In this document: piece by piece, positions 3,712 through 51,825 of the stretch
Layout of the letters: each line of letters opens with the position of its first letter
Position numbering within the stretch: position 1 is the stretch's first letter
NCBI RefSeq assembly: GCF_011305995.1
Contig: NZ_CP049910.1
Location: 5,718,501-5,782,500, forward strand
DNA from: Diaphorobacter sp. HDW4A
Lineage (GTDB): Bacteria > Pseudomonadota > Gammaproteobacteria > Burkholderiales > Burkholderiaceae_C
Length of the DNA stretch: 64,000 bases
Direction of reading: 5' to 3'
The notes under the pieces: generated by a model
Told to the model about the DNA's origin: nothing
Seen by the model: only the letters and a program-made list of their open reading frames with translations
The model's database searches: none
Program-made: the position numbers and the translations under genes

Positions 3712-3803
3712 GGCAATACAGGCCCTCATGCGTCGTTGCGAAGCCTTGCCGTATGAACATACTGTCTGCGGCTTCGACGCCTAGCCTGAGGGCCTGTCTT
3801 ACC
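3712..3803 (+). repeat. Structured palindromic repeat, copy 1
   Basis: First of three related 92-94-nt elements. The outer arms ACAGGCCCTCA (3718-3728) and TGAGGGCCTGT (3787-3797) are perfect reverse complements. Inside lie the conserved blocks TTGCGAAGCCTTGCC and TGTCTGCGGCTTCGACGCC, whose CGAAGCC and GGCTTCG can pair, and an apical hairpin GTATGAACATAC. Copy 2 (18310-18403) is the same orientation; copy 3 (51732-51825) is reversed. Arms and apical stems differ between copies but stay complementary. Confidence 0.85.
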
Positions 3804-3885
3804 GTTGTGGGGTTGGTTCGAAGGCCCTGCTCGCTTCTGGGGCCACTGTTTGAATTCGGGTGCGGTGGTGCTTTGATGCGGACGC

Positions 3886-3920
3886 AAAAAGGGGCCGTCC
3901 AGCTTTTGGCTGTGCGGCCC
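3886..3920 (-). terminator. Rho-independent terminator of recA
   Basis: Read on the minus strand, GGGCCG and CGGCCC form a 6-bp outer stem, CAGC and GCTG pair inside it, and a T-run follows (the A-run 3886-3890 on the plus strand). It lies about 65 nt past the recA stop and should limit transcription into recX. Confidence 0.85.
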
Positions 3921-3984
3921 TGAAGTCGAAAATGATTCGACAATTGCAAAGAAACTTGTGGGATGTCGCAGTGGACGGCCGGTC

Positions 3985-5079
3985 TTATTCTTCGCCGTCT
4001 CCCGCCTCATCCTTGTCGGCGCCGGGCGCTGCGGCCACGCTGGTCACACCGAGCAGGGGGATGCCGAGCGATTCGCGCACCTTGTTCTCGATCTCGACGG
4101 CGAGGTCGCGGTTTTCGCGCAGAAATTCACGCGAGTTGTCGCGGCCTTGGCCGATTTTTTCGCCGTTGTAGGCATACCATGCACCGCTCTTTTCAACGAT
4201 GCGCGCGTTCACGCCCATGTCGATGATTTCGCCTTCGCGCGAGATGCCTTCGCCGAACAGGATGTCGAACTCGGCCGTCTTGAACGGGGGCGAGACCTTG
4301 TTCTTCACGACCTTCACCTTGGTCTCGTTGCCGATGGCTTCGTCACCTCGTTTGATGGTGCCGGTGCGGCGGATATCGAGGCGCACGGAGGCGTAGAACT
4401 TCAGCGCATTGCCGCCGGTGGTGGTTTCGGGCGAGCCGAACATCACGCCGATCTTCATGCGGATCTGGTTGATGAAGATGACCATGCAGTTGGTCTTCTT
4501 GATCGTGGCGGTGAGCTTGCGCAGGGCCTGGCTCATCAGACGGGCCTGCAGGCCGGGCAGCGAGTCGCCCATTTCGCCTTCGATTTCGGCCTTGGGCGTG
4601 AGTGCGGCGACCGAGTCGACGACGATCAGGTCCACCGCGCCGGAGCGCACCAGGCTGTCTACGATTTCAAGCGCCTGCTCACCGGTGTCGGGCTGGCTGA
4701 TCAGCATTTCGGTGAGGTTCACGCCGAGTTTCTGTGCGTAGCCCGTGTCGAGCGCATGTTCGGCATCAATGAAGGCGCAGGTGCCGCCCTGCTTCTGCAT
4801 TTCGGCGATGACCTGCAGCGTGAGCGTGGTCTTGCCCGAGGATTCAGGACCGTAGATTTCGATCACGCGGCCGCGCGGCAGACCGCCGACGCCCAGCGCA
4901 ATGTCCAGACCCAGCGAGCCGGTGGAGACGACCTGGATGTCCTCGATCTTCTCGCCTTCGCCCAGGCGCATGATCGTGCCCTTGCCGAATTGCTTCTCGA
5001 TCTGGGCCAGCGCAGCCTGCAAGGCCTTGGCCTTCTCGCTGGTGTCTGCGGCAGAAGTGCTCTTCACAGTGGTGTCCAT
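3985..5079 (-). CDS. recA: Recombinase RecA
   Basis: RecA is the ATP-dependent strand-exchange protein of homologous recombination and the coprotease that triggers LexA self-cleavage. The 364-residue sequence has the Walker A motif GPESSGKT, the family core around [15 protein letters not shown] and an acidic C-terminal tail ending GDGEE. I chose the ATG at 5079 because AAGAGGA sits about 8 nt upstream and the N-terminus [20 protein letters not shown] then matches related proteins. An in-frame ATG at 5106 has a weaker ribosome site and would add nine residues. Two LexA boxes lie upstream and a terminator follows the stop. The MarR-type gene is divergent. Confidence 0.98.
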
Positions 5080-5135
5080 GGTGGGGGTCCTCTTGCTCGT
5101 TGCCATTGCGCTTTCCGTTTCTTGAATCTGGGAGA

Positions 5136-5151
5136 CTGTTTTTAATCACAG
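5136..5151. promoter_or_regulatory. LexA box 1 of recA
   Basis: CTGTTTTTAATCACAG matches the LexA consensus CTGT-N8-ACAG exactly. It sits about 57 nt upstream of the chosen recA start, where SOS repression is expected. Confidence 0.88.
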
Positions 5152-5153
5152 CC

Positions 5154-5169
5154 CTGTGTGCTTGAACAG
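5154..5169. promoter_or_regulatory. LexA box 2 of recA
   Basis: CTGTGTGCTTGAACAG also matches CTGT-N8-ACAG exactly and starts two bases after box 1. Centre-to-centre distance is 18 nt, so two LexA dimers could bind side by side on nearly the same DNA face offset. The box also lies in the control region of the divergent MarR gene. Confidence 0.85.
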
Positions 5170-5254
5170 TAGTTTATGTGGGGATACTTTTCTGTCAAAG
5201 CAATTTTTAGTCAGTTTGCATGACAATATGAAAACCACGTCACAGTCCTGAACC

Positions 5255-5746
5255 ATGACCGAGCTGCACCCCGTCACCCCCCCCTCCGACGCCTGGCGCG
5301 AGACCCATCTGGGCCGCCTGCTGGGCCACGCGATGCGGCGCTTCGACGAGCGCGTCTACCAGTTGATGGCGCACGACGTGGAGGTGCCGCTCGCGCTCTC
5401 CAACCTCGCCGCGCGCGAGCAGGTGAGCGCCGCGCACATCCACATCACGCGCCACCTCTCGCTCGCGGGCGATCGGCTGACCGATCTCGCACAAGCGGCA
5501 GGTATGACCAAGCAGGCCATGGCGAGTCTGGTCGATCAGTGCGAAGCCTGGGGTCTCGTCACACGCGAGACCGATCCGCGCGACGCACGTGCGCGCATCG
5601 TGCGTTTCACCGCGACGGGGCTCGTATGGCTCAAGGCCTTTGAAACCGCCGTGGCCCAGGCCGAGGCGGAGTTCAGGGAAGCCGTGGGCGAGGATGTGGC
5701 GACCGTGGTGGCGCTGGGGCTGGAGGTGTATGCGGAAGGGGAGTGA
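5255..5746 (+). CDS. MarR family transcriptional regulator
   Basis: A 163-residue winged-helix protein. The helix-turn-helix is at about residues 73-96 (LTDLAQAAGMTKQAMASLVD) and the wing follows with ETDPRDARARIVRFT, a MarR hallmark. The N- and C-terminal helices would form the dimer interface. It is divergent from recA, about 85 nt from the second LexA box, and stands alone. The next gene, a FAD oxidase, is convergent. The ligand and targets cannot be read from the sequence. Confidence 0.88.
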   Translation: MTELHPVTPPSDAWRETHLGRLLGHAMRRFDERVYQLMAHDVEVPLALSNLAAREQVSAAHIHITRHLSLAGDRLTDLAQAAGMTKQAMASLVDQCEAWGLVTRETDPRDARARIVRFTATGLVWLKAFETAVAQAEAEFREAVGEDVATVVALGLEVYAEGE

Positions 5747-5773
5747 GCTGGAGCTTGAGCGGGTAGCTGATCG

Positions 5774-7165
5774 TCACGCCGCCTTGTCTGCTTTCCCCGC
5801 AGCATTCGCCAGCTTGCTGAGCATGCGGTCGATCATCCAGGGCGCGCGGTCTTCGTCTTCTGCGCGTTCCTTGCGCCGGATGGCATTGCGCACGACGATG
5901 GAGCCCGCGTAGCGCAAGGGCTCGGGCGGGAACTGTCCGAGTGGGCCCTGCGTGAGCGGGCTGCGGCTCCAGGCATTGTCTTCACCCAGCACCAGCGACG
6001 AGAGCAGTTGACCGCCCATGTAGGTCGGGCCGACGCCGTTGCCCGAGTAGCCGAAGCCGTAGAAGATGTGGGGGGCGCCGTTCAACCGCCCGAAGAACGG
6101 GAAGCCGGTGGCCGAGCGGTCCGAGGGGCCGTTCCAACTGGCGGTGATCGGCACGTTTTTCAGTGACGGGAAGAAATCGTGCAGGGCCTCGGTGAGTTCG
6201 CCTTCGTAGGGCGAGCGTTCGTCGAAGATCGGTGCGATTTTTCCGCCGCGCGCGAAGGTGTTGCCGCCCTTGCCGAGCATGATGCGGCCATCCATCGAAG
6301 TGCGGTAGTAGTAGACGAAGGTGCGCGAGTCGAGCACCGAGACGCCATCGACAAGCCCCGTTGCTGCGAGCAGTTCGGGGCAGCGCTCGGTGATGATCAT
6401 GTCGCTGGAGACGATGGCGATGGTGCGCTCGAACTGCGCAAACGTGCTGGCCATCCAGGCGTTCATCGCGAGCACCACTTTTTTCGCGGTGACGCTGCCG
6501 CAGGGTGTGCGAACGATGGCGGGGCGGGCTTCGCTCAGCGCGATCATCGGGCTGCGTTCGTGGATGCGTATGCCCATCTCGATGGCCACGCGGCGCAGGC
6601 CGCGCACCAACTTGCCGGGATGCACCGTAGCCGCCTCGGGCGAGAACACGCCCGCGAGATTTTTGGCGGAACCTGAACGGCGTGCGATCTCCTGTGGCGG
6701 CAGTTCCCGGTAGGAGTTGATGCCGCGTTCTTCAAGCGCCGCCATCACCGGATCGAGCGTGCCGATCTGGGCCTTCGAAGTGGCGGTGTAGAGCGTGCCG
6801 TCGCGGCGGAATTCGGCGTCGATGCGGTGCTCGCGCACAAAGCGTTCGATGTGGCCGACGGCGTCTTCCGACGCACGCACGAGGCGCACGGCTTCGTCCT
6901 CGCCGAACAGGCGCTTGAGCGTGAAGAACTTGGCTGACCAGGTCAGCAGGCAACCGCCGTTGCGACCGCTCGCGCCCGCTCCGCAAAGGTCGCTTTCGAG
7001 GATGACGACGTCAAGCGCGGGATTTTTCTGCTTGGCTTGAATCGCGGTCCACAGCCCGGTGAACCCGCCGCCGACGATGCAGACATCGGCCGTTGTGTCG
7101 CCCTGCAGCGCTGGAGCAAGCGCCCCATCGGAAAACAAGGCTTGCTCGATCCAGAAGGGGCGCAT
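5774..7165 (-). CDS. FAD-dependent amine oxidase of the AEP cluster (PbfD-like)
   Basis: A 463-residue oxidoreductase of the DAO fold. The FAD dinucleotide motif is near the N-terminus (ADVCIVGGGFTGLWTAI) and a second flavin contact is near the C-terminus (FGYSGNGVGPTYMGG). The gene lies 6 nt after a PhnZ-like HD gene and in the AEP degradation cluster. FAD oxidases in such clusters (PbfC/PbfD) have been reported to oxidise AEP or N-methylated AEP to phosphonoacetaldehyde, and that is the inferred role here. Gamma-glutamylputrescine oxidase-like enzymes are the main alternative. Substrate is not proven by sequence. Confidence 0.8.
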   Translation of the reverse strand: MRPFWIEQALFSDGALAPALQGDTTADVCIVGGGFTGLWTAIQAKQKNPALDVVILESDLCGAGASGRNGGCLLTWSAKFFTLKRLFGEDEAVRLVRASEDAVGHIERFVREHRIDAEFRRDGTLYTATSKAQIGTLDPVMAALEERGINSYRELPPQEIARRSGSAKNLAGVFSPEAATVHPGKLVRGLRRVAIEMGIRIHERSPMIALSEARPAIVRTPCGSVTAKKVVLAMNAWMASTFAQFERTIAIVSSDMIITERCPELLAATGLVDGVSVLDSRTFVYYYRTSMDGRIMLGKGGNTFARGGKIAPIFDERSPYEGELTEALHDFFPSLKNVPITASWNGPSDRSATGFPFFGRLNGAPHIFYGFGYSGNGVGPTYMGGQLLSSLVLGEDNAWSRSPLTQGPLGQFPPEPLRYAGSIVVRNAIRRKERAEDEDRAPWMIDRMLSKLANAAGKADKAA

Positions 7166-7171
7166 GGTGGC

Positions 7172-7756
7172 TTACTCCGTTGTTGCGGTTGCGGTGAGTC
7201 GGGATTGGTGTGTGTGCGACGCGTGTTCCATGTGGCGCGTGAAATGCGCGAGGTCGGGCGTGCGCATGTCGGCGTCCTTGGCGAGATCGTCCCAGCGGCG
7301 CAGTTCCACCGCGTCGAGCGCGTGCGGGCGATTGGCGAACTCGGTTGCCTGTTCCGCCGTGAAGACACCACCCTGCAGTTGCAGGCTGCGTGCGGAATCG
7401 GCGGAGAGCGCTTCGAGGTAGCCCGGCTCATGCAGGCAGAGGTAGCGCTTGGCGTCCACATGCATGCGGATGGGCTCGAGTGTGGCGTCGCTGAACAGCG
7501 GGCGCAGGAAGGGAATGCAGAGGTATTGGTGGAGATCGTCCACGCCTTCTGTCGTTGGCGAGCCCCTCATGCCGTGCAGGAGGTGGCCGAGGTCGTGGAG
7601 GAGGGCGGCGGTGATGAGGGCGCTGTCTGCGCCTTGGAGTTCTGCTAGGTGGGCTGATTGGAGGGCGTGTTGTAGTTGGGTTACGGGCTCGCCGTCGTAC
7701 TGGGCGTGGCCTTTGTTTTCGAAGATTTGGACTATGTCTTGGATGGTCAAGCTCAC
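7172..7756 (-). CDS. PhnZ-like HD-domain mixed-valent diiron oxygenase
   Basis: A 194-residue HD-domain protein of the phosphonate-operon HDIG family. The expected diiron ligands are all present: H30, H54-D55, H76, H99 and D156 or D157. Tyr20 and Glu23 match the PhnZ residues that bind or gate the substrate. PhnZ cleaves the C-P bond of (R)-1-hydroxy-2-aminoethylphosphonate to glycine and phosphate. The partner hydroxylase PhnY* (2-oxoglutarate dioxygenase) is not in the window, so the substrate here may be different or made elsewhere. The gene is translated just before the FAD oxidase and follows the repeat-filled gap after phnY. Confidence 0.88.
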   Translation of the reverse strand: MSLTIQDIVQIFENKGHAQYDGEPVTQLQHALQSAHLAELQGADSALITAALLHDLGHLLHGMRGSPTTEGVDDLHQYLCIPFLRPLFSDATLEPIRMHVDAKRYLCLHEPGYLEALSADSARSLQLQGGVFTAEQATEFANRPHALDAVELRRWDDLAKDADMRTPDLAHFTRHMEHASHTHQSRLTATATTE

Positions 7757-7800
7757 TGGTTTCTCCTTCTCTTTTTTGACTATGCTGCGTTGCTGGCGGC

Positions 7801-7980
7801 AGAGGCCGGGAGTTCCGCCCGGCGGCGGAGTGACTTTTTGGTCTTGCCCAAAAAGTCACCAAAAATGCGCTTTTCAATACCCGCGGCAGAACTCGCTGCG
7901 TTCCTTCGTCACTCCGCTCGGGCAACCGCCGCGAGTCAGAATTTTCATAAGAGGTGTGTTCGGCACATCGCTTCGCTCGT
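7801..7980 (+). repeat. Mosaic intergenic repeat, copy A
   Basis: About 180 nt, related to copies B (8116-8295), C (37693-37901) and D (38066-38214). It begins with a short GC-rich inverted stretch, then a 12-bp hairpin GTGACTTTTTGG / CCAAAAAGTCAC (7830-7859). The shared blocks GGCAGAACTC, CACTCCGCTCGGGCAACCG and AGAGGTGTGTTCGGCAC follow. Copy B lies in inverted orientation about 135 nt away. Confidence 0.85.
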
Positions 7981-8022
7981 GGCGCACCAACATCTCGCGA
8001 CTTCGCGAGATGTTGGTGCGCC
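7981..8022. repeat. Perfect 20-bp inverted repeat with 2-nt loop
   Basis: GGCGCACCAACATCTCGCGA is followed by CT and then by its exact reverse complement. It directly abuts copy A of the mosaic repeat. Copy C ends in a shorter relative (TGCATCTCGCG-TT-CGCGAGATGCA, 37878-37901). No T-run follows, so it is not a standard terminator. Confidence 0.85.
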
Positions 8023-8115
8023 AGTGCTATGCGATTTTTGATTTGCTCGTTGGATCGACTTTCTTCAAAAGAACAGTGGGCATTTGCACCCAACCCAACT
8101 CTGCAAACGCCCCCG

Positions 8116-8295
8116 GCACGAGCGCAGCGACGTGCCGTAAACACCTCTTTCACAACTGATTTCCGGCGGTTGTCCGAGCAGAGTGACGAAGGAACGCCGC
8201 GAGTTCCCGCCGGATGACTGCAAAGCGCATTTTTGGTGACTTTTTGAGCAAGACCAAAAAGTTACTCGCCCGCCGGGGCGAGACCCGGCCTCTGC
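8116..8295 (-). repeat. Mosaic intergenic repeat, copy B (inverted)
   Basis: Reverse-orientation relative of copy A. Read on the minus strand it has the same order of blocks: CCGGGTCTCG-type start, the hairpin (8236-8265; GTAACTTTTTG / CAAAAAGTCAC), then TCACTCTGCTCGGACAACCG and GAGGTGTTTACGGCACGTCG. The hairpin stem differs from copy A at some positions, with mostly compatible pairing. Confidence 0.82.
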
Positions 8296-8339
8296 AAGCA
8301 AACCCACAGCAGGCGCGGGCCAAGGGCAATAACAAAAAG

Positions 8340-9791
8340 TCACCAAGGCAACGAATAAGTCTTCGTATTCGTAAAGCTCTTCATGGCTTCAAGCACCCCC
8401 TCCTTGTACCCAAGCCCAGAATCCTTGATCCCCCCAAACGGCGTGAGTTCCAAGCGATAACCAGGAACTTCGCGAATGTTCACACTACCCACGTTCAGCT
8501 CGCTGATGAACCGCGTGATGTAGTCAAGCCGGTTCGTGCAGATCGACGACGACAGACCAAAAGCCGTACCGTTCGAGAGCTTGATCGCTTCTTCAATTGT
8601 CTTGAAACGGATCACAGGCGAGACCGGGCCGAAGGTTTCCTCGCGTGCTACGCGCATGTCGAGCGTGACGTTGTCCAGCACCGTGGGCGAGTACAGCGCG
8701 CCCTTGCGGATGTTGCCGCACTTGAGCGTGGCACCGGCCGCGATGGCTTCGTTGACAACCGTTTCGAAGTAGATCGCGGCTTCTTCGTCGATCACGGTGC
8801 CCATGTCGACGTTGGCGTCCATGGGGTCGCCGTACTTGATGACCTTGGTTTTTTCGACCAGCAGTTCGACAAAACGGTCGGCCACCGATTCATGCACCAG
8901 CATGCGCTTGATCGCCGTGCAGCGCTGGCCGCTGTTCTTGTAGCTGCCGCTGGCGGCCAGCGTGGCGGCTTCTTCGACGTCGGCGTCTTCCATCACGATG
9001 ATGGGGTCGTTGCCGCCGAGCTCGAGGATCTGGCGCTTGTAGACCGCCTTGCCCGCGATGTACTTGCCGATGGGCACGCCCCCGGTGAAGGTGACCAGAT
9101 CGACGTCGTCGCTGGTGAGCATCTCGTCGCAGATCTCGCGCGGGTCGCCGGAGATCACGCTGAGCATTTCGGGCGGCAAGCCTGCCTCATACAAGATGTC
9201 GGCGAGCACGTAGGCGGTGAACGGAGTCTTCTCGCTGGGCTTGAGCACCGTGCGGTTGTTGGTGGCAATCGCGGGAGCGAGTTTGTGGATCACCTGGTTG
9301 AGCGGGTGGTTGAAGGGCGTGATCGCGGTGATCGCGCCCTGCAGCGGCTCGCGCATGGTGTAGACCTTGCGGCTCTTGCCGTGGTGGGTGAGGTCGCACG
9401 AGAACACCTGACCATCATCGACCAGTGCCTGGTTGGCGGCGAACAGCAGCACGTCGGAGGCGCGGCCCACTTCGTAGAGCGAGTCCTTGCGACACAGGCC
9501 CGATTCGAGCGTGATGAGCTTGGAGATCTCATCGAGGCGCGTGGCGATGATCTCGCCCGCGCGCATCAGGATCTTGTAGCGCTCGTAGCGCGTGAGCTTG
9601 GATTGGTAGCCGCGTGCGATTTGGTAGGCGCGGCGCACGTCTTCCAGCGCGGCTTTGCCGACCGAGCCGATGACTTCGCCGGTGTAGGGGTAGGTGACGT
9701 CGATGCGCTCCTTGGTCTCCACGCGCTGGCCTGCGATGCGCAGGGTTTCGTGGCGGAGTTCGGGAGCCTTGTGCAATGCGGATACGGTCAT
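8340..9791 (-). CDS. phnY: Phosphonoacetaldehyde dehydrogenase PhnY
   Basis: A 483-residue aldehyde dehydrogenase with the catalytic Cys in NSGQRCTAIKR and the Glu in LELGGNDP. The start MTVSALHKAPELRHETLRIA is preceded by AAGGAGAG about 5 nt upstream; the longer open frame would extend into phnA. In this context it should oxidise phosphonoacetaldehyde to phosphonoacetate with NAD+, the step between PhnW and PhnA. It lies 31 nt after phnA on the same strand. The downstream HD and FAD genes are separated by 583 nt of repeats. Confidence 0.9.
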   Translation of the reverse strand: MTVSALHKAPELRHETLRIAGQRVETKERIDVTYPYTGEVIGSVGKAALEDVRRAYQIARGYQSKLTRYERYKILMRAGEIIATRLDEISKLITLESGLCRKDSLYEVGRASDVLLFAANQALVDDGQVFSCDLTHHGKSRKVYTMREPLQGAITAITPFNHPLNQVIHKLAPAIATNNRTVLKPSEKTPFTAYVLADILYEAGLPPEMLSVISGDPREICDEMLTSDDVDLVTFTGGVPIGKYIAGKAVYKRQILELGGNDPIIVMEDADVEEAATLAASGSYKNSGQRCTAIKRMLVHESVADRFVELLVEKTKVIKYGDPMDANVDMGTVIDEEAAIYFETVVNEAIAAGATLKCGNIRKGALYSPTVLDNVTLDMRVAREETFGPVSPVIRFKTIEEAIKLSNGTAFGLSSSICTNRLDYITRFISELNVGSVNIREVPGYRLELTPFGGIKDSGLGYKEGVLEAMKSFTNTKTYSLPW

Positions 9792-9822
9792 GGGGAACTC
9801 TCCTTTTTTGGTGTTTCTTCGA

Positions 9823-11800
<1,978 letters not shown>

Positions 11801-11819
11801 TGTTCGGTTGTAAATGCAA

Positions 11820-11845
11820 ACTGTCAACAGTTTTCTATTGACAGT
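11820..11845. promoter_or_regulatory. Candidate PhnR operator
   Basis: ACTGTCAA-N10-TTGACAGT is a perfect 8-bp inverted repeat in the intergenic region shared by the regulator gene and the divergent AEP transporter. It is 20 nt upstream of the regulator start. Its symmetry and place fit autoregulation and control of the transporter. Confidence 0.7.
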
Positions 11846-17578: not shown

Positions 17579-18253
17579 ATGCGCATACTCATAGCCGAAG
17601 ATGATCAGGTGCTGGCAGACGGCCTCTTGCGCACCCTGCGCGCGTCGGGCGCGGTCGTCGATCATGTGGCCAACGGCTCCGAAGCCGATGCGGCGCTGAT
17701 CACCAACAATGAATTCGATCTGCTGATTCTCGATCTGGGCCTGCCCAAGCTGCACGGCCTCGAGGTCTTGAAGCGCCTGCGCGGACGTGGGTCCGGCATT
17801 CCGGTGCTGATCCTCACCGCAGCCGACAGCGTCGAGGAGCGCGTGCAGGGCCTTGACTACGGCGCCGACGACTACATGGCCAAACCGTTCTCGCTGCAGG
17901 AGCTCGAAGCCCGCGTGCGCGCGCTCACGCGGCGCGGCATGGGAGGCGCGAGCAGCGTCATCAAGCACGGCCCGCTCACCTACGACCAGACCGGCCGCGT
18001 TGCCTCCATCGACGGCAAGATGGTCGAACTCTCTGCCCGTGAGCTGGGCCTGCTCGAGGTGCTGCTGCAGCGCGCCGGGCGGCTGGTGAGCAAGGATCAG
18101 CTGGTCGAGCGGCTGTGCGAGTGGGGGGAAGAGGTCAGCAACAATGCCATCGAGGTGTATATCCACCGGCTGCGCAAGAAGATCGAAAAAGGCCCCATCC
18201 GCATAGCGGCCGTGCGCGGGCTGGGGTATTGCCTCGAGAAGATTCCTGGCTGA
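17579..18253 (+). CDS. OmpR-type response regulator (TctD-like)
   Basis: A 224-residue regulator. The receiver domain has the acidic pair at D8-D9, the phospho-acceptor Asp52 (LLILDLGLP), Thr80 and Lys102 (YMAKPF). The C-terminal winged-helix domain ends VYIHRLRKKIEKGPIRIAAVRGLGYCL. GGAGAC lies just upstream of the ATG. With the kinase that follows it resembles the TctDE system for tricarboxylate uptake. No tctCBA genes are next to it, though a Bug receptor gene lies about 2.7 kb downstream on the other strand. The exact signal is unknown. Confidence 0.92.
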   Translation: MRILIAEDDQVLADGLLRTLRASGAVVDHVANGSEADAALITNNEFDLLILDLGLPKLHGLEVLKRLRGRGSGIPVLILTAADSVEERVQGLDYGADDYMAKPFSLQELEARVRALTRRGMGGASSVIKHGPLTYDQTGRVASIDGKMVELSARELGLLEVLLQRAGRLVSKDQLVERLCEWGEEVSNNAIEVYIHRLRKKIEKGPIRIAAVRGLGYCLEKIPG

Positions 18254-18309
18254 TACGTTTGTTGGACATACGAAGCCTGGCGGCTTCGCTGGCGGGTCCT
18301 TTTTGAGGT

Positions 18310-18403
18310 GCCAATACAGCCCTTCATGCGTTGTTGCGAAGCCTTGCCGTAGTACACACTACTGTCTGCGGCTTCGACGCCTGGCTTGAAGGGCTGTATT
18401 GGC
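18310..18403 (+). repeat. Structured palindromic repeat, copy 2
   Basis: Outer arms GCCAATACAGCCCTTCA (18310-18326) and TGAAGGGCTGTATTGGC (18387-18403) are a perfect 17-bp inverted repeat. The inner blocks TTGCGAAGCCTTGCC and TGTCTGCGGCTTCGACGCC are as in copy 1. The apical hairpin is GTAGT-ACAC-ACTAC, different in sequence from copy 1 but still paired. It lies between a response-regulator gene and its kinase gene. Confidence 0.87.
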
Positions 18404-18527
18404 ATTGGGGTGGTGGCTTGAGCGACGCAGACACTTCGGAGACAGTCGTTCGCTTTCGTTGTCAGCCTCGTGAATGTCTTGCGCTTGATACTTTGAGAGA
18501 ACCCTTTTCAGACTTGCAGGCCATTTT

Positions 18528-43435: not shown

Positions 43436-43514
43436 GCAGGCAATAACCTTTGGCGGTTCATTGCCGTTGGTGCACAGGCTATGCTGTTCCTCACATGAAG
43501 TGAGACAACAGCCC

Positions 43515-44390: not shown

Positions 44391-44411
44391 GCATTGCGCG
44401 GCTGTGTTCGC

Positions 44412-45212
44412 TCAAGCGCCGCAATGCTTGAGTGGCTTGCCCAGCAGCGCAGTGCGCAACTGGCTTTCGGCCTTGGTGCGCAGGGCGTCGTCTGCGGTGG
44501 GCAGTCGCAGCGTGTAGACGTTGGTTTCCTTGCGCTCGACCACGACACGCGCGGTGCGCACACCCTTGCTGGTGAGTTGCGTGAGTGCGCGCTGTGCCGC
44601 CTCGTCCGTCGAGAAGCGGCCGAGCGAAAGACCCGGCTCGAAGGCTGTGCCGGGGCGGTCGTAGTCGATCTGCAGGTTCTTGAGTTCGGCGCGCTTCTTG
44701 GCGACCGCTTCGTCGTCGGGGAGCTTGCCGATGTAGACCATCCAACGGCCGGGAACCGGCGTGGGATCGAACTTCCAGCTGTTGGTGGGCAGGGCGCTCT
44801 GGGCGGCGATGCGCAGGGTCTGCATCTGCTGTTCGTCATACGAGCCGGCCTGCAGGCAGACCGTGCGCTGCGGTGCGGTGGGGGGTGGCGTCGACACAGG
44901 AGCGGCAGCTGCCACCGAGGCGGTGCTGGCCGGTGCACTTGGTGCAGAAGCGGGGGCGGTGGCCACCACGGCGGAAACCGTGTCGGATGCGGTAGAAGCG
45001 GCGGAAGCCGTTCCTGACGCCTCAGAAGCTGGCGCGAGCGCCGCCGAGCTGATGGGCGTCACCTGCATCTTCTGCGGATCGATCTGCAGGTCGAGGCGCT
45101 GCGGCTCGGCCTGTACTGTGGGCCCCCAGCCCATGGTGCGCAGCATGCCCTGAGACCATGCATAGTAGCCCGCGTTGGCGAGCAGCAGAACGATGACGGC
45201 GATGCGCAGCAT
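44412..45212 (-). CDS. SPOR domain protein, membrane-anchored
   Basis: A 266-residue protein with an N-terminal membrane anchor (LRIAVIVLLLANAGYYAW), a Pro/Ala/Ser/Thr-rich linker (about 50-135) and a C-terminal SPOR domain (about 165-250). SPOR domains bind denuded peptidoglycan at the division site. It follows birA by 52 nt. In many betaproteobacteria coaX (type III pantothenate kinase) lies between birA and a SPOR gene; it is absent here. Confidence 0.87.
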   Translation of the reverse strand: MLRIAVIVLLLANAGYYAWSQGMLRTMGWGPTVQAEPQRLDLQIDPQKMQVTPISSAALAPASEASGTASAASTASDTVSAVVATAPASAPSAPASTASVAAAAPVSTPPPTAPQRTVCLQAGSYDEQQMQTLRIAAQSALPTNSWKFDPTPVPGRWMVYIGKLPDDEAVAKKRAELKNLQIDYDRPGTAFEPGLSLGRFSTDEAAQRALTQLTSKGVRTARVVVERKETNVYTLRLPTADDALRTKAESQLRTALLGKPLKHCGA

Positions 45213-45264
45213 GATGAGGTGACCCCTTCCCTTGTCTGTGTTTTATGTACGGTTGGCGCGCAGA

Positions 45265-46161
45265 TTATGCGGACTGTCCCGGCAGTGGCTGGCCGACGGG
45301 ACGCACGCTGATGTCGCCGCTGGTGATGGCTTGCAGTCCAGCGGCGGTATTGATCAGCAGCGTGCCATCGTCCGTCACGCCGCTTGCCATGCCGCTCGTG
45401 CCATCGCTCAGATGCACCTGGCGCCCGTTCAGCAGATCGCGCTGTGCGAAACGTGTCTTGTACGGCGCGAAGCCGCTGTGTGCAAAGGCGTGCAGGGTCT
45501 TGATCAGTGGAGGAATGATGGTGAGCAGCGCTTCGGGTGCGGTCCAGCGCGGGTCGATGTCGGTGAGGCACGCGGGCTGCGTCGTCATGCCGTCGCCGGT
45601 GCGCGCCAGCACGTTCAGGCCGATGCCGACCACCACATAGCGCAGGGCGGTGTCGTTCTCGACCGCCATCGTGCCCGGCGCGGCCATGAAGCTCGCAGTT
45701 TCGACGAGGATGCCGCCGAACTTGCGGTCGCCCGAGAGCCACAGGTCATTGGGCCACTTGAGGCCCACGCGCGGCAGTCCGCTCGCCTCGCTCGGGATTT
45801 CGAGCTGGAGGCTGTCCGCCACGCTCACGCCCACGGCCAGTGACAGGCCCGACCACTCCTTGGGCCTGAGAGGCAGGCCCAGCGACATCATCAGCGAGGC
45901 GGGGCCCAGCTCCGCCGCGTGTGCGGTCTCCTGACTCTGCCAGGGACGGCCCAAGCGGCCGCGCCCAGCAGTCTGCTCCTCGGTCACCAGCAGGATGGGG
46001 TCGCAGCGGCCCGCACGGGCGCGGCGCATGAGCTCGGTGTTGGTCGAGTCGATGGAGGGCAGAACCTCCACGCTGAAATCGGGCACATCGGTCACCACGG
46101 CCTGCCAGATGGCCTCGGAGGGCCAGCGGATCGGAGAACGGTAATGGCCTGCGGTGGTCAC
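45265..46161 (-). CDS. birA: Biotin--[acetyl-CoA-carboxylase] ligase BirA
   Basis: A 298-residue biotin protein ligase. It has SIDSTNTELMRRARAG, the biotinyl-AMP motif EEQTAGRGRLGRPWQS and VGLKWPNDLWLSGDRKFGGILVE. The DNA-binding N-terminal domain of E. coli BirA is missing, so it is a ligase only. The start is GTG, overlapping the stop of the SET gene by 4 nt (GTGA), which suggests coupled translation. Confidence 0.93.
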   Translation of the reverse strand: MTTAGHYRSPIRWPSEAIWQAVVTDVPDFSVEVLPSIDSTNTELMRRARAGRCDPILLVTEEQTAGRGRLGRPWQSQETAHAAELGPASLMMSLGLPLRPKEWSGLSLAVGVSVADSLQLEIPSEASGLPRVGLKWPNDLWLSGDRKFGGILVETASFMAAPGTMAVENDTALRYVVVGIGLNVLARTGDGMTTQPACLTDIDPRWTAPEALLTIIPPLIKTLHAFAHSGFAPYKTRFAQRDLLNGRQVHLSDGTSGMASGVTDDGTLLINTAAGLQAITSGDISVRPVGQPLPGQSA

Positions 46162-46880
46162 TTCTTGCTGCCCTTGGCTTTCTGAGGCTTCTTGTCTTTG
46201 TTCTTGTCGGGGCTTTTGGCCGATGACTTGGTTTTGTCCGATGGCTTGTCCGACTTCTTTTCCAGTTTTTTCTCCAGTTTCTTTTCTGGCTTCTTTTCGG
46301 ATTTAGCTATCTTTTTTGATTCGGATTTGGCTTCAGGCTTGGATTTCTCGGACTTTTTATTTTTCTTGACCGGCTCCATTCCCTTGGGCGCCCAGCCGCG
46401 TTTGGGGGCCAGCAGCGTGCCTCGGCAGTCTTCACTGCCACACCAGCAGGGATATTCGGCTTTGAGTTTCGGGGTATAACGCTCCTCGATAATCAGTCCG
46501 TAGTCGTAATTGAGCTCTTCGCCCGCATGGATATTGCGCAGGGCCGTGATGAAGATCCGGCCTTCGATTTCATCTGCAAAACAGTTGGGATCGCAGCTGT
46601 GGTTGATCCAGCGCGCGGAGTTTCCGCCATGTTTCGCGTCGATGACGCGGTCTTCGTCCACATGGAAATAGAACGTATGGTTGGGCTGCTTGGGGTCGTG
46701 CGGATGCCGATCCTGCGCCTCCTGCCAGCCGATGACCTCTCCCACGTATTCGATGAGAACCTCGCCCTCGGCAATGTCCTGCAACGCGAACACACCCTTG
46801 CCATGCACGCCGGAGCGTCGTGTCTGGATGCGGCGGCCCGGCGGGATGGTCGGGATATTGGAGGGTGCGTTTCGGGCCAT
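46158..46880 (-). CDS. SET-domain protein lysine methyltransferase with Lys-rich tail
   Basis: A 240-residue SET protein. The SET domain (about 15-150) has GVHGKGVFALQDI, the AdoMet motif ARWINHSCDPNC and GEELNYDYG; a post-SET Cys cluster CWCGSEDC follows. The tail (about 172-240) is Lys/Ser/Pro-rich with KKLEKKLEKK-type repeats, like histone H1. It would methylate lysines of bacterial proteins, possibly DNA-bound ones. The start at 46880 is chosen since the longer frame runs through the divergent promoter. It is divergent from topB and overlaps birA. Confidence 0.9.
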   Translation of the reverse strand: MARNAPSNIPTIPPGRRIQTRRSGVHGKGVFALQDIAEGEVLIEYVGEVIGWQEAQDRHPHDPKQPNHTFYFHVDEDRVIDAKHGGNSARWINHSCDPNCFADEIEGRIFITALRNIHAGEELNYDYGLIIEERYTPKLKAEYPCWCGSEDCRGTLLAPKRGWAPKGMEPVKKNKKSEKSKPEAKSESKKIAKSEKKPEKKLEKKLEKKSDKPSDKTKSSAKSPDKNKDKKPQKAKGSKK

Positions 46881-46903
46881 GGCTGAAAACTCTGTTAGTT
46901 TGA

Positions 46904-46936
46904 ATATGTACACATGCGTGCGCGTGCGCGCGCATG
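46904..46936. other. 33-nt alternating purine-pyrimidine tract
   Basis: Every base from 46904 to 46936 alternates purine and pyrimidine, including TGCGCGTGCGCGCGCA. Such tracts are prone to form left-handed Z-DNA under negative supercoiling. It lies in the 97-nt divergent promoter region of the SET gene and topB. The alternation is directly visible; the structure is inferred. Confidence 0.7.
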
Positions 46937-46977
46937 AAGCCGAATTGTAGAAGCGCCGTAAAGGCCAACCCACACAA

Positions 46978-49893
46978 ATGAATAAAACGCTGGTCATTGC
47001 AGAGAAACCGTCGGTTGCACAAGACATCGTGCGTGCCCTCACGCCCGTTGCTGGCAAGTTCGACAAACACGAAGATCATTTCGAGAACGAGCGCTACGTC
47101 GTCACCAGCGCGGTCGGTCACCTGGTCGAGATCCAGGCGCCGGAAGAATTCGACGTCAAACGCGGCAAATGGAGCTTTGCGCACCTGCCCGTGATTCCGC
47201 CGTACTTCGATCTGAAGCCGGTGGACAAGACCAAGACGCGTCTGAACGCCGTGGTCAAGCAGGCCAAGCGCAAGGACGTCACCGAACTCATCAACGCCTG
47301 TGACGCGGGCCGCGAAGGGGAGTTGATCTTCCGCCTGATCGAGCAATACGCGGGCGGCGCCAAGGGCGGCCTCGGCAAGCCCGTCAAGCGCCTGTGGCTG
47401 CAGAGCATGACGCCGCAAGCGATCCGCGACGGCTTCAACCAGCTGCGCTCGGACACGCAGATGCAGGGCCTCGCCAGCGCCGCGCGCAGCCGCTCCGAGG
47501 CCGACTGGCTGGTCGGCATCAACGGCACGCGTGCGATGACCGCATTCAACTCGCGCGATGGCGGCTTCTTCCTGACCACCGTGGGCCGGGTGCAGACGCC
47601 GACGCTGTCGCTGGTCGTCGAGCGCGAGGAAAAGATCCGCAAATTCGTGAGCCGCGATTACTGGGAAGTGCACGCCGGCTTTGCCGCCGAGGCGGGCGAC
47701 TATCTGGGCAAGTGGTTTGATCCGAAGTGGAAGAAGTCGGAAGACCCGGAAGCCAAGGCCGATCGCCTGTGGAACCACAAGGATGCGGTCACCATTGCCG
47801 AGGCTGTGCGCGGCAAGCCCGCCACCGTCACCGAAGAATCCAAGCCCACTACGCAGGCATCGCCGCTGCTGTTCGACCTGACCAGCCTGCAGCGCGAGGC
47901 CAACGGAAAGTTCGGCTTCTCCGCCAAGACCACGCTCGCGCTCGCGCAGAGCCTGTATGAACGCCACAAGGCGTTGACCTACCCTCGTACCGATTCGCGC
48001 GCGCTGCCCGAAGACTATCTGCCGGTCGCCAAGGAAACCTTCGGCATGCTGGCCACGAGCGGCATGCGCCATCTCGCACCGTTCGCCAAGCAGGCCTTGG
48101 ACGAGAACTACGTGCGTCCGAGCAAGCGCATCTTCGACAACAGCAAGGTGTCGGATCACTTCGCGATCATCCCGACCACGCAGGCGCCCAGTGGTCTGTC
48201 CGAGGCAGAGCAGAAGCTGTACGACCTGGTCGTGCGCCGCTTCATGGCCGTGTTCTTCCCGAGTGCCGAGCACCAGGTCACCACCCGCATCAGCCAGGTC
48301 GTGGGTCACCACTTCAAGACCGAAGGCAAGGTGCTGGTCAAGCCCGGGTGGCTGGCGATCTACGGCAAGGAAGCGGCCAACGAGGTCGAAGGCGGCAAGG
48401 AAGGCGAGAAGGGCCAGCCGCTGGTGCAAGTCAAACCCGGCGAGACGCCGCGCACCGAACACGCCGACGCCAAGGGCCTCAAGACCAAGCCGCCCGCACG
48501 CTACTCGGAAGCCTCGCTGCTCGGCGCGATGGAAAGCGCTGGCAAGCAGATCGACGACGAAGAACTACGCGATGCCATGCAGGACAAGGGCCTCGGCACG
48601 CCAGCCACGCGCGCCGCGATCATCGAAGGTTTGATCACCGAAAAATACATGCTGCGCGAAGGCCGTGAGCTGATCCCGACTGCCAAGGCCTTCCAGCTCA
48701 TGACGCTGCTGCGCGGCCTCGGCGTGGAAGAACTCTCGCGCGCCGATTTGACTGGCGAGTGGGAGTACAAGCTCTCGCAGATGGAAAAAGGCCAGCTTTC
48801 GCGTGAAGCCTTCATGCAGCAGATCCAGGCCATGACGGAAAAGCTCGTCAAGAAGGCCAAGGAATACGACCGCGACACCATCCCCGGCGACTACGCGACG
48901 CTCGAGACCCCATGCCCCAACTGCGGCGGCGTGGTCAAGGAAAACTACCGCCGTTTTGCCTGCACCGGCAAGCCCGGCGAGGGCAGCGAAGGCTGCGGTT
49001 TCTCGTTCACCAAGTCGCCCGCAGGCCGCACGTTCGAAACGCAGGAAGCCGAAACGCTGGTGCGTGAACGCCGCATCGGCCCGCTGGAAGGCTTCCGCTC
49101 CAAAGCCGGCTGGCCGTTCACCGCGGAAGTCGCCATCGTGCGCGACGAAGAGAACAACAACTTCAAGCTGGAATTCGACTTCGGCGACGACAAGGCCGAT
49201 GAGGATTCGGGCGAGATCATCGACTTCTCCGCGCAGGAAAGCCTCGGCAAATGCCCGGTCTGCGGTGCGCCGGTCTACGAGCATGGTGCCAACTACGTCT
49301 GCAGCAAGTCCGTGCCCACACAGGAGCAGCCCACACCGAGCTGCAAGTTCAAGAGCGGCAAGATCATCCTGCAGCAGCCCGTCGAGCGCGCACAGATGAA
49401 CAAGCTGCTCGAAACTGGCAAGACCGACCTGCTCGACAAGTTCGTGAGCATGCGCACGCGCCGCGCGTTCAAGGCTTTCCTGGTCTGGGACGCGGCTGAG
49501 GGCAAGGTGAACTTCGAGTTCGAAAAGCGCGACTCCAAGTTCCCGCCGCGCAAGACGGCAGCCGGTTCAACCGCTGCAGCCAAGAAGGCCCCAGCCGCCA
49601 AGAAAACCGCCGCCGCAAAGAAGGCCCCCGCAGCCAAGAAGACTACGACCAAGAAGGCCCCGGCAGCAGGCACTTTGAAGCCCAGCACCGCACTCGCCGC
49701 CGTCATCGGCGACGGGCCAGTCTCACGCCCCGAAGTCGTCAAGAAGCTCTGGGACTACATCAAAGCCAATAACCTGCAGGACCCGGCAGACAAGCGCTCG
49801 GTGGTGGCCGACGCCAAGCTGCTGCCGGTGTTCGGCAAGGACAAGGTGAGCATGTTTGAGATTGCGGGCATCGTGGGCAAACATGTGAGCTGA
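46978..49893 (+). CDS. topB: DNA topoisomerase III with C-terminal SWIB domain
   Basis: A 971-residue type IA topoisomerase. The TOPRIM metal site is in CDAGREGELI and the active Tyr335 in TYPRTDSRALP. Two Cys4-like zinc modules follow (CPNCGG...; CPVCGAP...). After a Lys/Ala-rich repeat linker (about 860-898, AAKKAPAAKK units), residues 900-971 form a SWIB/MDM2-like domain (SRPEVVKKLWDYIKANNLQD and LLPVFGKDKVSMFEI). The fusion is longer than E. coli TopB (about 650). It is divergent from the SET methyltransferase gene. Confidence 0.93.
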   Translation: MNKTLVIAEKPSVAQDIVRALTPVAGKFDKHEDHFENERYVVTSAVGHLVEIQAPEEFDVKRGKWSFAHLPVIPPYFDLKPVDKTKTRLNAVVKQAKRKDVTELINACDAGREGELIFRLIEQYAGGAKGGLGKPVKRLWLQSMTPQAIRDGFNQLRSDTQMQGLASAARSRSEADWLVGINGTRAMTAFNSRDGGFFLTTVGRVQTPTLSLVVEREEKIRKFVSRDYWEVHAGFAAEAGDYLGKWFDPKWKKSEDPEAKADRLWNHKDAVTIAEAVRGKPATVTEESKPTTQASPLLFDLTSLQREANGKFGFSAKTTLALAQSLYERHKALTYPRTDSRALPEDYLPVAKETFGMLATSGMRHLAPFAKQALDENYVRPSKRIFDNSKVSDHFAIIPTTQAPSGLSEAEQKLYDLVVRRFMAVFFPSAEHQVTTRISQVVGHHFKTEGKVLVKPGWLAIYGKEAANEVEGGKEGEKGQPLVQVKPGETPRTEHADAKGLKTKPPARYSEASLLGAMESAGKQIDDEELRDAMQDKGLGTPATRAAIIEGLITEKYMLREGRELIPTAKAFQLMTLLRGLGVEELSRADLTGEWEYKLSQMEKGQLSREAFMQQIQAMTEKLVKKAKEYDRDTIPGDYATLETPCPNCGGVVKENYRRFACTGKPGEGSEGCGFSFTKSPAGRTFETQEAETLVRERRIGPLEGFRSKAGWPFTAEVAIVRDEENNNFKLEFDFGDDKADEDSGEIIDFSAQESLGKCPVCGAPVYEHGANYVCSKSVPTQEQPTPSCKFKSGKIILQQPVERAQMNKLLETGKTDLLDKFVSMRTRRAFKAFLVWDAAEGKVNFEFEKRDSKFPPRKTAAGSTAAAKKAPAAKKTAAAKKAPAAKKTTTKKAPAAGTLKPSTALAAVIGDGPVSRPEVVKKLWDYIKANNLQDPADKRSVVADAKLLPVFGKDKVSMFEIAGIVGKHVS

Positions 49894-49927
49894 TTGCTTT
49901 CGCCGCGCACGGATAACACCGTTTCAG

Positions 49928-49968
49928 GCCGCAGTGGTTCCGTTGACGAACGGGCCGCTGCGGCTTTT
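49928..49968 (+). terminator. Rho-independent terminator after topB
   Basis: GCCGCAG and CTGCGGC form a 7-bp stem around a loop that itself holds a GTTC / GAAC stem, followed by four T. It is about 35 nt past the topB stop. Confidence 0.7.
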
Positions 49969-50142
49969 GATTATCTGCGCGGCCTTCGTTGGATTTGCGT
50001 GCATTGCTGCGTGATCAATCGCAACTCCGGGTGTGCTGAATATGAGCCAACACATGCACGCATGATTAATCAATGAATCGCCCCGAGGGCCTGATGTAGA
50101 GTGGTTTTCACTCAAACATCAGGTCATACGAGGGAGGTCGAA

Positions 50143-51660
50143 GTGCTCAATTTGAGAGGCGCGAAACGCGTCGTTATTCTGGGTGGTGGTACGGCGGGGT
50201 GGTTTGCCGCTTTGTCGCTCAGAAAGATTTTCAGTGTAGCGGTGGAGATCCGCGTGATCGAGTCGTCGCAGATCGGCGTGGTGGGCGTGGGCGAGGGGGG
50301 CTTGCTGAATCTGCAAGCCGCGCTGCACTCCATTGATATCGACACCAATGATTTCGTGTGCGAGACGGGGGCGACCTACAAGTGGGGGTTCAGCTACGAG
50401 GGCTGGCGCACCGGGGCGAAGGATGATCGCTACTTTCATCCGTTCGCGTCGGCAGAAGGGCTGGCGTCGAAGTGGGAGAAGAGCGGTGGCTTTCCGCTGA
50501 TCTCGGCGATGATCCACAACGGCATCGAGATGCCCGACTATCTGCGCGGCATGGAGCTCATCAAAAACAACGCGAGCCAGCAGGAGGCCAAGCAGGCGCT
50601 CGACGACAAGCAGGTCGACATCATCAGCTCGTTTCACTTCGACAGCTACAAGATCGCCGAGTTCTTCAAGAAGACGGCGCTTGCGCGCAACATCGTGCAC
50701 CAGGACGCCATCGTCGACGACGTGCAGACGAACGAGCAGGGCCGCGTTGTGGCGGTTGTCACGCGCGAGGGCGAGCGCATCGAGCTTGATCTCGTGGTCG
50801 ATGCGAGCGGGCTGTCGCGCAAGATCATCGGCAAGGTGGTGCCAAGCCGCTGGCAGTCGTTTGGCGAGCATCTGCTGATGGATCGCGCGATTCCGTTCTA
50901 CATGCCGCACCCCGAAAAGAATCCCGGTCTGGTGAGCCGCGCCATCGCGCTGTCGTCGGGCTGGATGTGGCAGATTCCGCTGGTGAACCGTGTGGGCGCG
51001 GGCTATGTCTACAGCAGCAAACACGTGTCCGACGAAGATGCGGCGGCCGAGATCGAGAGCCATCTGGGCTATGCGGTCAAGCCACAACGGGTGATCCGTT
51101 TCGAGCCGGGCTGCTATGAGCAGGTCTGGGTCGGCAATGTGCTGAGCGTGGGGCTGGCCTCGGGCTTTGTGGAGCCGCTGGAGGCGACTTCCATTGGCCA
51201 GATGATCGAGAGCGTGCGCAACTTCGTGCGGGTGCTCACGCTGAGCCAGGGCATCGTGTCGGACAGCGCGGTGCGTGAGTTCAACATGTCGAACCACCAG
51301 TCGTGGATCGAGGTGCGCGACTTCCTGCGCATGCACTACGACTGCCCGCGCCGCGACACCCCGTTCTGGCGCGACGTGGCCGCGACGCCGCTACCTGACG
51401 CTTACCGCGCGCTCAAGGAATGCATGCAACTGCGCGCGCCACGCCTGCTCGATCTGGAAGGCTACACGCTGCACGGCAGGCGCGGCATCTTCCACGTGAT
51501 CAACTGGATGTTCGTCGCCACGGGCCTCGGCCTGATCCCGCGCGACGCAGTGAAGACCGAGCTGATGGCACTGCCCAACGAAGGCAAGCAAGCCGTAGGC
51601 GAGTTTCTCGCGTGGCTGCAGCAACGAAAGACGGCAGCCACAGCAGCAGCGGCAACCTGA
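50143..51660 (+). CDS. Flavin-dependent tryptophan halogenase family protein
   Basis: A 505-residue protein of the tryptophan halogenase family. The FAD motif is VVILGGGTAGWFAALSL; the signature SSGWMWQIP is intact; a Lys at residue 80 (GATYKWGFSYEGW) matches the catalytic Lys79 of PrnA and RebH. With a partner FADH2 supply it would halogenate an aromatic substrate. GTG 50143 is chosen because GGGAGG lies about 5 nt upstream; an earlier GTG at 50101 has no site. No flavin reductase, tailoring gene or TonB receptor is next to it, so the substrate is unknown. Confidence 0.88.
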   Translation: MLNLRGAKRVVILGGGTAGWFAALSLRKIFSVAVEIRVIESSQIGVVGVGEGGLLNLQAALHSIDIDTNDFVCETGATYKWGFSYEGWRTGAKDDRYFHPFASAEGLASKWEKSGGFPLISAMIHNGIEMPDYLRGMELIKNNASQQEAKQALDDKQVDIISSFHFDSYKIAEFFKKTALARNIVHQDAIVDDVQTNEQGRVVAVVTREGERIELDLVVDASGLSRKIIGKVVPSRWQSFGEHLLMDRAIPFYMPHPEKNPGLVSRAIALSSGWMWQIPLVNRVGAGYVYSSKHVSDEDAAAEIESHLGYAVKPQRVIRFEPGCYEQVWVGNVLSVGLASGFVEPLEATSIGQMIESVRNFVRVLTLSQGIVSDSAVREFNMSNHQSWIEVRDFLRMHYDCPRRDTPFWRDVAATPLPDAYRALKECMQLRAPRLLDLEGYTLHGRRGIFHVINWMFVATGLGLIPRDAVKTELMALPNEGKQAVGEFLAWLQQRKTAATAAAAT

Positions 51661-51731
51661 AACAGCTAGGTATTCGGGGTTCAAAGCAGCGGGCCAACGA
51701 AGCAAGCACCCGCCGCGATCAACCCCCACAA

Positions 51732-51825
51732 CGCCGATACAGGGGGTGAGACAAGGCGTCGCCGACGCAGACATACCTTCCGGTAGGCAAGGAGGTGCAA
51801 CGCAGTATCACCCCCTGTATCGGCG
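51732..51825 (-). repeat. Structured palindromic repeat, copy 3
   Basis: Outer arms CGCCGATACAGGGGGTGA (51732-51749) and TCACCCCCTGTATCGGCG (51808-51825) are a perfect 18-bp inverted repeat. Read on the minus strand it has CTTGCC, the apical hairpin TACC-GGAA-GGTA, TGTCTGCG and CGACGCCT at the same places as copies 1 and 2. It lies between convergent genes. Confidence 0.87.

What the first reader, a model, noticed from the sequence alone, without database searches (positions are those of the whole stretch)
3712..51825. A 92-94-nt palindromic element in three intergenic places with compensatory arm and loop-stem changes
Copies at 3712-3803, 18310-18403 and 51732-51825 (reversed) share fixed blocks (CTTGCC, TGTCTGCG, CGACGCC) at fixed spacing. 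The outer arms differ (GGCCCTCA, GCCCTTCA, GGGGGTGA) yet each copy pairs perfectly over 11-18 bp, and the 12-nt apical hairpin differs too (GTATGAACATAC, GTAGT-ACAC-ACTAC, TACC-GGAA-GGTA). Keeping the pairing while changing the bases points to a selected structure (RNA element, protein-bound hairpin or REP-like mobile unit) and not a simple duplicated sequence. No family name is known to me for it.
Basis: partly seen in the sequence, partly recalled or inferred. Interest (0 to 1): 0.72.

Follow-up and report, generated by a model that had tools for sequence, protein, structure and literature searches.

The report
Mobile DNA hairpin at gene ends
The three window sequences belong to a large family of short, non-coding DNA hairpins that sit between genes, have come and gone between related bacteria, and keep the same fold while their letters change; they are best read as a REP-like or MITE-like repeat rather than an RNA gene.

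Summary
Observation confirmed. The three copies belong to a family with at least 79 strong matches in the host and 33, 84 and 99 in three same-genus (Diaphorobacter-type) genomes. The shared fold is an outer stem, a second stem and an apical hairpin of free sequence, separated by two conserved, not invariant, internal loops. In 47 sequences all 17 tested pairs change on both sides (42 of the 47 were picked by a pattern that fixes two pairs); G-T pairs are rare (8 of 678). Host elements look like mobile DNA: occupied and empty orthologous sites, gene 3' ends favoured, leading-strand orientation in 62 of 79, independent of gene direction. Elsewhere many begin at a stop codon; identical 3-bp flanks occur in 17 of 88 against 2.5 or, in a stricter control, 7.9 expected. 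No mobilising enzyme was found. The published repeat BRE may be the same family; sequences could not be compared. Verdict: a new variant of REP/MITE-like repeats; function inferred only.

The parts
3712..3803 (+). copy 1, palindromic element, between recX and recA (both on the minus strand)
   Evidence: R2 core match 3723-3791 at 80.5 bits; recA, recX
3657..3711 (+). copy 1, genus-specific 5' part with small hairpin (3674-3690) and G/T-rich stretch; ends by eye
   Evidence: alignment of 17 copies; 5' motif at 3694
3804..3854 (+). copy 1, genus-specific 3' part; ends by eye
18310..18403 (+). copy 2, palindromic element, between a response regulator gene (stop at 18253) and a sensor kinase gene
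   Evidence: R2 core match 18321-18391 at 72.1 bits; genes
18254..18309 (+). copy 2, 5' part beginning right after the stop codon; small hairpin 18271-18288; ends by eye
   Evidence: not present at the orthologous site of G231
18404..18458 (+). copy 2, 3' part (right edge approximate, from comparison with the empty site in G231)
51732..51825 (-). copy 3, palindromic element, between convergent genes: tryptophan-halogenase family (stop 51660, plus) and LysE type (stop at 51880, minus)
   Evidence: R2 core match 51745-51813 at 56.8 bits; genes
51826..51879 (-). copy 3, 5' part beginning after the LysE-type stop codon; small hairpin 51846-51862; ends by eye
   Evidence: kept in G231 although the palindrome is missing there
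51682..51731 (-). copy 3, 3' part; ends by eye
   Evidence: kept in G231

Best explanation
A non-autonomous, REP-like or MITE-like palindromic repeat that spreads as DNA and persists at gene 3' ends. Shown: many dispersed copies, a shared hairpin with covarying stems and conserved internal loops, occupied and empty orthologous sites, avoidance of genes and of divergent promoters, strand polarity relative to replication in the host. Inferred: an enzyme acting in trans recognises the extruded or single-stranded hairpin through its loops, and insertion favours or tolerates sites at stop codons. Weaker inference: after insertion the hairpin may protect or insulate the 3' end of the neighbouring gene. 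The two enzyme clues disagree: 3-bp duplications (other genera) point to a DDE transposase, replication polarity (host) to a single-strand, HUH-type one.
For: At least 79 matches in the host; 33, 84 and 99 in three same-genus genomes. 18 of 34 predicted pairs with changes on both sides among 17 host copies; 17 of 17 pairs among 47 sequences, 85.4% of cells paired against 58.9% shuffled, covariation score 0.641 against 0.180. Copy 2 is in the host and its site lacks it in G231 and G147; G018 has a copy at a site that lacks it in the window and G231. Copy 1 is present in G231 and G018, absent in G147; at copy 3 G231 has both flanking parts without the palindrome and G018 has no element. Contexts of 79: convergent 28, co-directional 48, divergent 3, against 18, 141, 32 of 191 background pairs; p 1e-6 and 0.003. 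Polarity 62 of 79 in the host, 63 of 85 printed C1 copies of G018, 10 of 12 printed copies of G147, 30 of 39 in G294. Identical 3-bp flanks in 17 of 88 copies of other genera: loose control mean 2.45, largest 6 of 300 shuffles; strict control mean 7.9, 1 of 2000 reached 17.
Against: No transposase was tied to it: the host's only Y1/RAYT-type gene has no element match above 8.4 bits in its 3.3-kb locus, and 18 of 102 element-positive family genomes lack a detectable one (association weak, p 0.025). No target duplication was established in the host genus. In other genera 72 of 87 copies have a co-oriented gene upstream, as an RNA or 3'-end role would also predict. Polarity is not significant in G262 (16 of 25) and G128 (8 of 13), and outside the host it was not corrected for gene strand. 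G018 and the host share some orthologous copies, so their counts are not independent.
Confidence: 0.6

Rival explanations
1. A functional 3'-UTR RNA element: a transcribed hairpin directly after the stop codon that shields the mRNA 3' end or affects termination, its fold kept by selection on the RNA.
For: In 87 non-Diaphorobacter copies with both neighbours called, 72 follow a co-oriented gene; in 57 of those 72 the stop codon ends 17-32 nt before the core. In one search, 60 copies had a stop codon within 40 nt (40 of them at 24-25 nt): TGA 35, TAA 18, TAG 7. The RNA fold is very stable. Transcripts from a BRE-containing region of Bordetella are published (PMC3110155, abstract and section 14).
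Against: Host copies show no direction preference relative to co-directional genes (27 against 21). G-T pairs are rare: 8 of 678 paired cells in A5 (15% in shuffles) and 2 of 284 in variable host pairs (9% in shuffles); in A8 G-T cells (13) are fewer than A-C mismatches (73), partly an alignment effect; in the larger host set A7, however, G-T (30) exceed A-C (13), as expected from composition. No terminator-like site was found by a simple scan around copy 1.
Confidence: 0.2
2. A chromosome-organisation or replication-related DNA site kept by selection, like binding sites for nucleoid or recombination proteins.
For: Co-orientation with replication, independent of gene direction in the host; the window type is rare outside chromosomes: 1 of 72,556 plasmid records with copy 1 as query, none of 50,697 phage records with copy 2.
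Against: Positions differ between same-genus genomes at all three window copies; copy number varies from 33 to 99 within one genus. Spacing along the chromosome was not tested.
Confidence: 0.1
3. The covariation is mutational: template switching inside imperfect palindromes copies one arm onto the other, so pairing is restored without selection. (This can hold together with the mobile-element reading.)
For: Nearly all double changes are Watson-Crick and G-T intermediates are rare.
Against: The same process should also remove the unpaired loops, yet GTTG is kept in 25 of 26 family loci outside the genus that were not picked by the exact pattern, CTTGCC in 17, TGTCTGCG in 16, CGCCTAG in 13; R1, which picked them, does reward these motifs.
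Confidence: 0.3

Closest known systems
BRE, betaproteobacterial repeat element (Hot et al. 2011, PMC3110155)
   Same: About 90 bp, dispersed, mostly intergenic, signs of mobility; reported for Acidovorax, Polaromonas, Rhodoferax, Delftia and others (section 14), overlapping the hosts.
   Different: BRE is reported as sometimes in tandem and not co-oriented with the replication fork; host copies here show no tandem array among the 79 (nearest two about 2 kb apart) and are co-oriented in 62 of 79.
REP / BIME with RAYT (PMC2817692, passages seen; PMC3733652, abstract, section 6 and passages seen)
   Same: High-copy extragenic palindromes near gene ends; close inverted doublets in some distant relatives (4 of 20 loci).
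   Different: No GT(A/G)G head and no CGTC-tagged 8-9 bp stem; about 92 nt with two internal loops; the host's RAYT-type gene is not flanked by copies.
MITEs such as ERIC and Correia/NEMIS elements (named in PMC3110155 section 14; details recalled)
   Same: Short, non-coding, palindromic ends, intergenic, signs of 3-bp duplications in relatives.
   Different: No parent insertion sequence identified (not searched for by its ends); a conserved asymmetric core between the arms.

Membership tests
REP (GTAG or CGTC class) | unpaired GT(A/G)G or CGTC tag beside a 20-40 bp palindrome | tested here: not met
   by reading the alignments; definition from PMC2817692 passages and PMC3733652 abstract and section 6
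REP (GTAG or CGTC class) | RAYT gene flanked by two inverted REPs | tested here: not met
   single Y1_Tnp gene of the host (NCBIfam REP_Tyr_transpos 72.4 bits, below its 80-bit cut-off); best element score in its 3.3-kb locus 8.4 bits, filters off
REP (GTAG or CGTC class) | many extragenic copies near gene 3' ends | tested here: met
MITE | short, non-coding, terminal inverted repeats | tested here: met
   indels of 1-2 nt between copies speak against a conserved reading frame
MITE | target site duplication | tested here: inconclusive
   17 of 88 in other genera, expected 2.45 or 7.9 under a stricter control; not established in the host genus
MITE | parent IS with the same ends | not tested
   no search for insertion sequences by end sequence was made
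BRE | sequence similarity to the Bordetella copies | not testable with these tools
BRE | ~90 bp, mostly intergenic, multi-copy in Betaproteobacteria | tested here: met
Known structured RNA (Rfam 15) | match above a family's gathering score | tested here: not met
   whole window, 0 matches; permissive searches of copy 1 and of 8 host loci gave only scores far below the gathering scores

The most novel reading that the evidence does not exclude
A class of mobile DNA spread over many Beta- and some Gammaproteobacteria whose identity is a structure more than a sequence: a three-stem hairpin with two conserved internal loops that an unknown trans-acting enzyme reads as single-stranded DNA at the replication fork, inserting with polarity relative to replication and, in several genera, at stop codons, so that the arms are free to drift as complementary pairs.
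Probability: 0.22. Interest if true: 0.75.

Novelty: new variant of a known kind. Interest (0 to 1): 0.55.

Why it matters
If right, one structural family unites repeats that look unrelated by sequence across many Beta- and some Gammaproteobacteria, and gives a clean test of how REP-like elements move: by fold recognition on single-stranded DNA, with preference for one replication strand and for gene ends. It is also a case where covariation, usually taken as a sign of RNA function, may instead report a DNA palindrome.

Tried and rejected
RNA family: Rfam gave nothing. Protein-coding: set aside, copies differ by 1-2 nt indels. RAYT as mobiliser: one Y1-type match in each of the four same-genus genomes, but not flanked by copies in the host, and weakly associated in the family (both 84, element only 18, Y1 only 138, neither 59 of 299; p 0.025). 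Plasmids and phages: window type on 1 of 72,556 plasmid records, a 761-kb replicon of Diaphorobacter sp. HDW4B, and on none of 50,697 phage records (other copy as query); a Cupriavidus-type copy matches 7 plasmid-collection records, 16 places in each of two C. metallidurans records; an Acidovorax-type and a distant-class query matched none, a G099-type query 9 records. First alignment A1 mixed strands and was discarded. Integron attC sites were considered from recall and set aside by eye; no search was run. Papers: the listings of searches show none that describes this element by sequence (one search listed 20 of 4,158 papers; the library lacks most subscription papers); PMC10969869 seen in passages only, nothing relevant. 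The report that E. coli REPs close to stop codons affect translation is recalled, not looked up.

Weak points of my own tests. Circularity: 42 of the 47 sequences of A5, all 88 copies of the duplication test and nearly all loci given for A8 came from an exact pattern or were filtered by it, which fixes CGTCGTTG, CTTGCCGT and ACTGTCTGCG; so their invariance in A5, and two of the 17 pairs, are by construction. Without that filter the motifs are conserved but not invariant. Duplication test: a first version with naive boundaries was negative (1 against 1.8); the positive one moves the boundary in by one base, chosen after seeing TGA/TGA flanks; raised values at offsets 2 and 3 with k 2 (34 and 25) come from self-complementary base pairs at the ends and are no evidence; the stricter control lowers the excess from sevenfold to about twofold. 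Named copies are not independent (several per genome, some at orthologous places; only exact duplicates were removed). Background gene pairs include the three window pairs that hold elements and pairs with no intergenic space; the contrast of convergent with divergent does not depend on the latter. The gene caller is a simple codon-usage script, overlap up to 30 nt was tolerated.

Rows dropped: one search used 89 named copies (six Diaphorobacter loci and copies within 600 nt of a locus end left out), 87 with both neighbours; one search used 88 (same six loci, exact duplicates, copies near locus ends and copies without a clear outer stem left out); polarity used the 85 C1 copies of G018 printed of 99 matches, the 12 of G147 printed of 33, and 13 of G128 (13 scored). 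Confidence in the best explanation and the novel case was lowered slightly.
Full report
Check of the observation. The two-block pattern occurs three times in the window against 0.01 in shuffles, and the three-block pattern 17 times in the host genome against none read backwards. All three copies fold better than each of 200 shuffles, as DNA and as RNA. The spacing varies by 2 nt, the blocks are conserved rather than fixed in the 79 host copies, and in this genus the repeat is longer than stated, with patchy 5' and 3' parts.

Size and spread. A covariance model from 17 host copies (R1) lists 79 matches at E up to 2.8e-10 in the 6.76-Mb host assembly, all on contig 1 (150 of 3,172 candidates scored), and 99, 84 and 33 in three same-genus genomes at E up to 1e-8. 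The genus is inferred: G231 contig 1 has the length of Diaphorobacter caeni NR2-3-3-1 contig 1, 873,578 bases, and the G018 second-contig match coincides with a place on a 761,384-base replicon of Diaphorobacter sp. HDW4B. R1 matches 102 of 299 genomes of the family at E up to 1e-3, at most 73.5 bits outside the genus; the weaker of these were not inspected, and the opposite strand of a host copy alone can reach 34 bits, so some may be other long hairpins. The 26 best loci outside the genus were read and look like the element. A core model (R2) matches 26 of 369 genomes of the class at E up to 1e-5, three of them in the host's family including the host; outside the family most scores are 37-50 bits, two are 60 and 70, and a few genomes have 5 to 13 scored matches. 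Of 20 such loci read, the loops often differ (CTTGA 14 and CGCCTTG 20 of 24 matches) while GTTG is in 24 of 24.

The fold. Three stems of free sequence are separated by two internal loops with sides GTTG / CGCCTAG and CTTGCC / TGTCTGCG. In A5, 85.4% of cells pair against 58.9% in shuffles, covariation is 0.641 against 0.180, all 17 pairs change on both sides at least once, and sliding the partner by 1-3 columns lowers pairing to 30-57%. Caution: 42 of the 47 sequences were picked by a pattern that fixes most of the loops and the first two pairs of the apical stem. The two main stems are free of that bias, and within the host alone 18 of 34 pairs show compensatory changes. Without the pattern, 26 family loci picked by R1 have GTTG in 25, CTTGCC in 17, TGTCTGCG in 16 and CGCCTAG in 13, all four in 5. 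G-T pairs are rare: 8 of 678 paired cells against 15% in shuffles, and 2 of 284 for variable host pairs against 9%. In A8 A-C mismatches (73) outnumber G-T (13), partly because outer columns do not pair in Cupriavidus-type copies; in the larger host set A7 it is 30 G-T and 13 A-C, no departure from expectation. A selected RNA should tolerate G-U more; this fits a DNA palindrome better. That step rests on general knowledge, no RNA control set was run.

Mobility. At copy 2 the host has about 205 nt between the response regulator stop codon and a conserved TTGTCAG where G231 has 7 nt and G147 about 40 nt of other sequence; in G018 that place holds a member of a different repeat. G018 has a copy at a site that lacks it in the window and in G231. 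Copy 1 (recX-recA) is shared with G231 and G018 and absent from G147. At copy 3 G231 keeps both flanking parts but lacks the palindrome, best read as a deletion between short GGGGGT repeats; G018 has no element there, and the G147 stretch fetched was not the orthologous place.

Position. With a simple ORF caller none of 79 host copies overlaps a gene by more than 30 nt; 28 lie between convergent, 48 between co-directional and 3 between divergent genes, against 18, 141 and 32 of 191 background pairs. Direction relative to co-directional genes is not biased in the host (27 and 21). Among 87 named copies of other genera 72 have a co-oriented gene upstream, and in 57 of these the stop codon ends 17-32 nt before the core, 40 of 60 stop codons within 40 nt end at 24-25 nt. 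In these genera 17 of 88 copies have identical 3-bp flanks, 16 of the form TNA: 2.45 expected in a loose shuffle, 7.9 when the boundary pair is kept, reached in 1 of 2000. An earlier test with another boundary was negative.

Replication. With the origin placed by dnaA, the element's plus strand has the leading-strand sense in 62 of 79 host copies (p 4e-7), 63 of 85 printed in G018 and 10 of 12 printed in G147. Within co-directional contexts of the host 39 of 48 copies are leading while their genes split 26 and 22, so gene direction does not explain it. In more distant genomes it is 30 of 39 (p 0.001), 16 of 25 and 8 of 13 (not significant), without correction for gene strand.

Mechanism. Best reading: a DNA element moved in trans by an enzyme that reads the hairpin. 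The enzyme is unknown. Each same-genus genome has one Y1/RAYT-type match, but it is not flanked by copies in the host, and 18 of 102 carriers in the family lack one. Three-base duplications would suggest a DDE enzyme; polarity would suggest a single-strand one. I leave this open.

Relation to known families. It works like REPs and MITEs but is not a GTAG or CGTC REP (definitions seen in PMC2817692 passages and PMC3733652 abstract and section 6). BRE (PMC3110155: outline with abstract, passages and section 14 read) matches in size, location and host range; sequences could not be compared, and BRE is reported as not co-oriented with the fork. I therefore call it a new variant of a known kind, with a fair chance that it is BRE in a new light.

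Noticed in passing
window 7799-8295: A second, larger palindromic repeat (arms of 122, 36 and 29 nt) with dozens of places on both strands in G231, G147 and G018; a relative (77% over 190 nt) fills the copy-2 site in G018.
   Followed up: partly
L335, L343, L344, L349: Distant relatives in the class occur as close inverted doublets, 36 nt apart, like REPINs; overlapping opposite-strand matches also in L066, L071, L073.
   Followed up: no
A8 alignment of non-Diaphorobacter copies: A-C mismatches exceed G-T pairs on the plus strand (73 against 13), as if G-T were tolerated only on the minus strand; partly an alignment effect, and not seen in the host.
   Followed up: partly
L095, L124, L128, L187 (Cupriavidus sp. 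YR651): Several copies share a different right half, as if recombined with another repeat.
   Followed up: no
L087, L088, L091, L175: Element directly after what reads as a groEL stop codon (Met/Gly-rich end) in four metagenome bins; the gene name is recalled from the end motif, not searched.
   Followed up: no
window 50101-51660: Tryptophan-halogenase-family gene next to copy 3 (PF04820).
   Followed up: no
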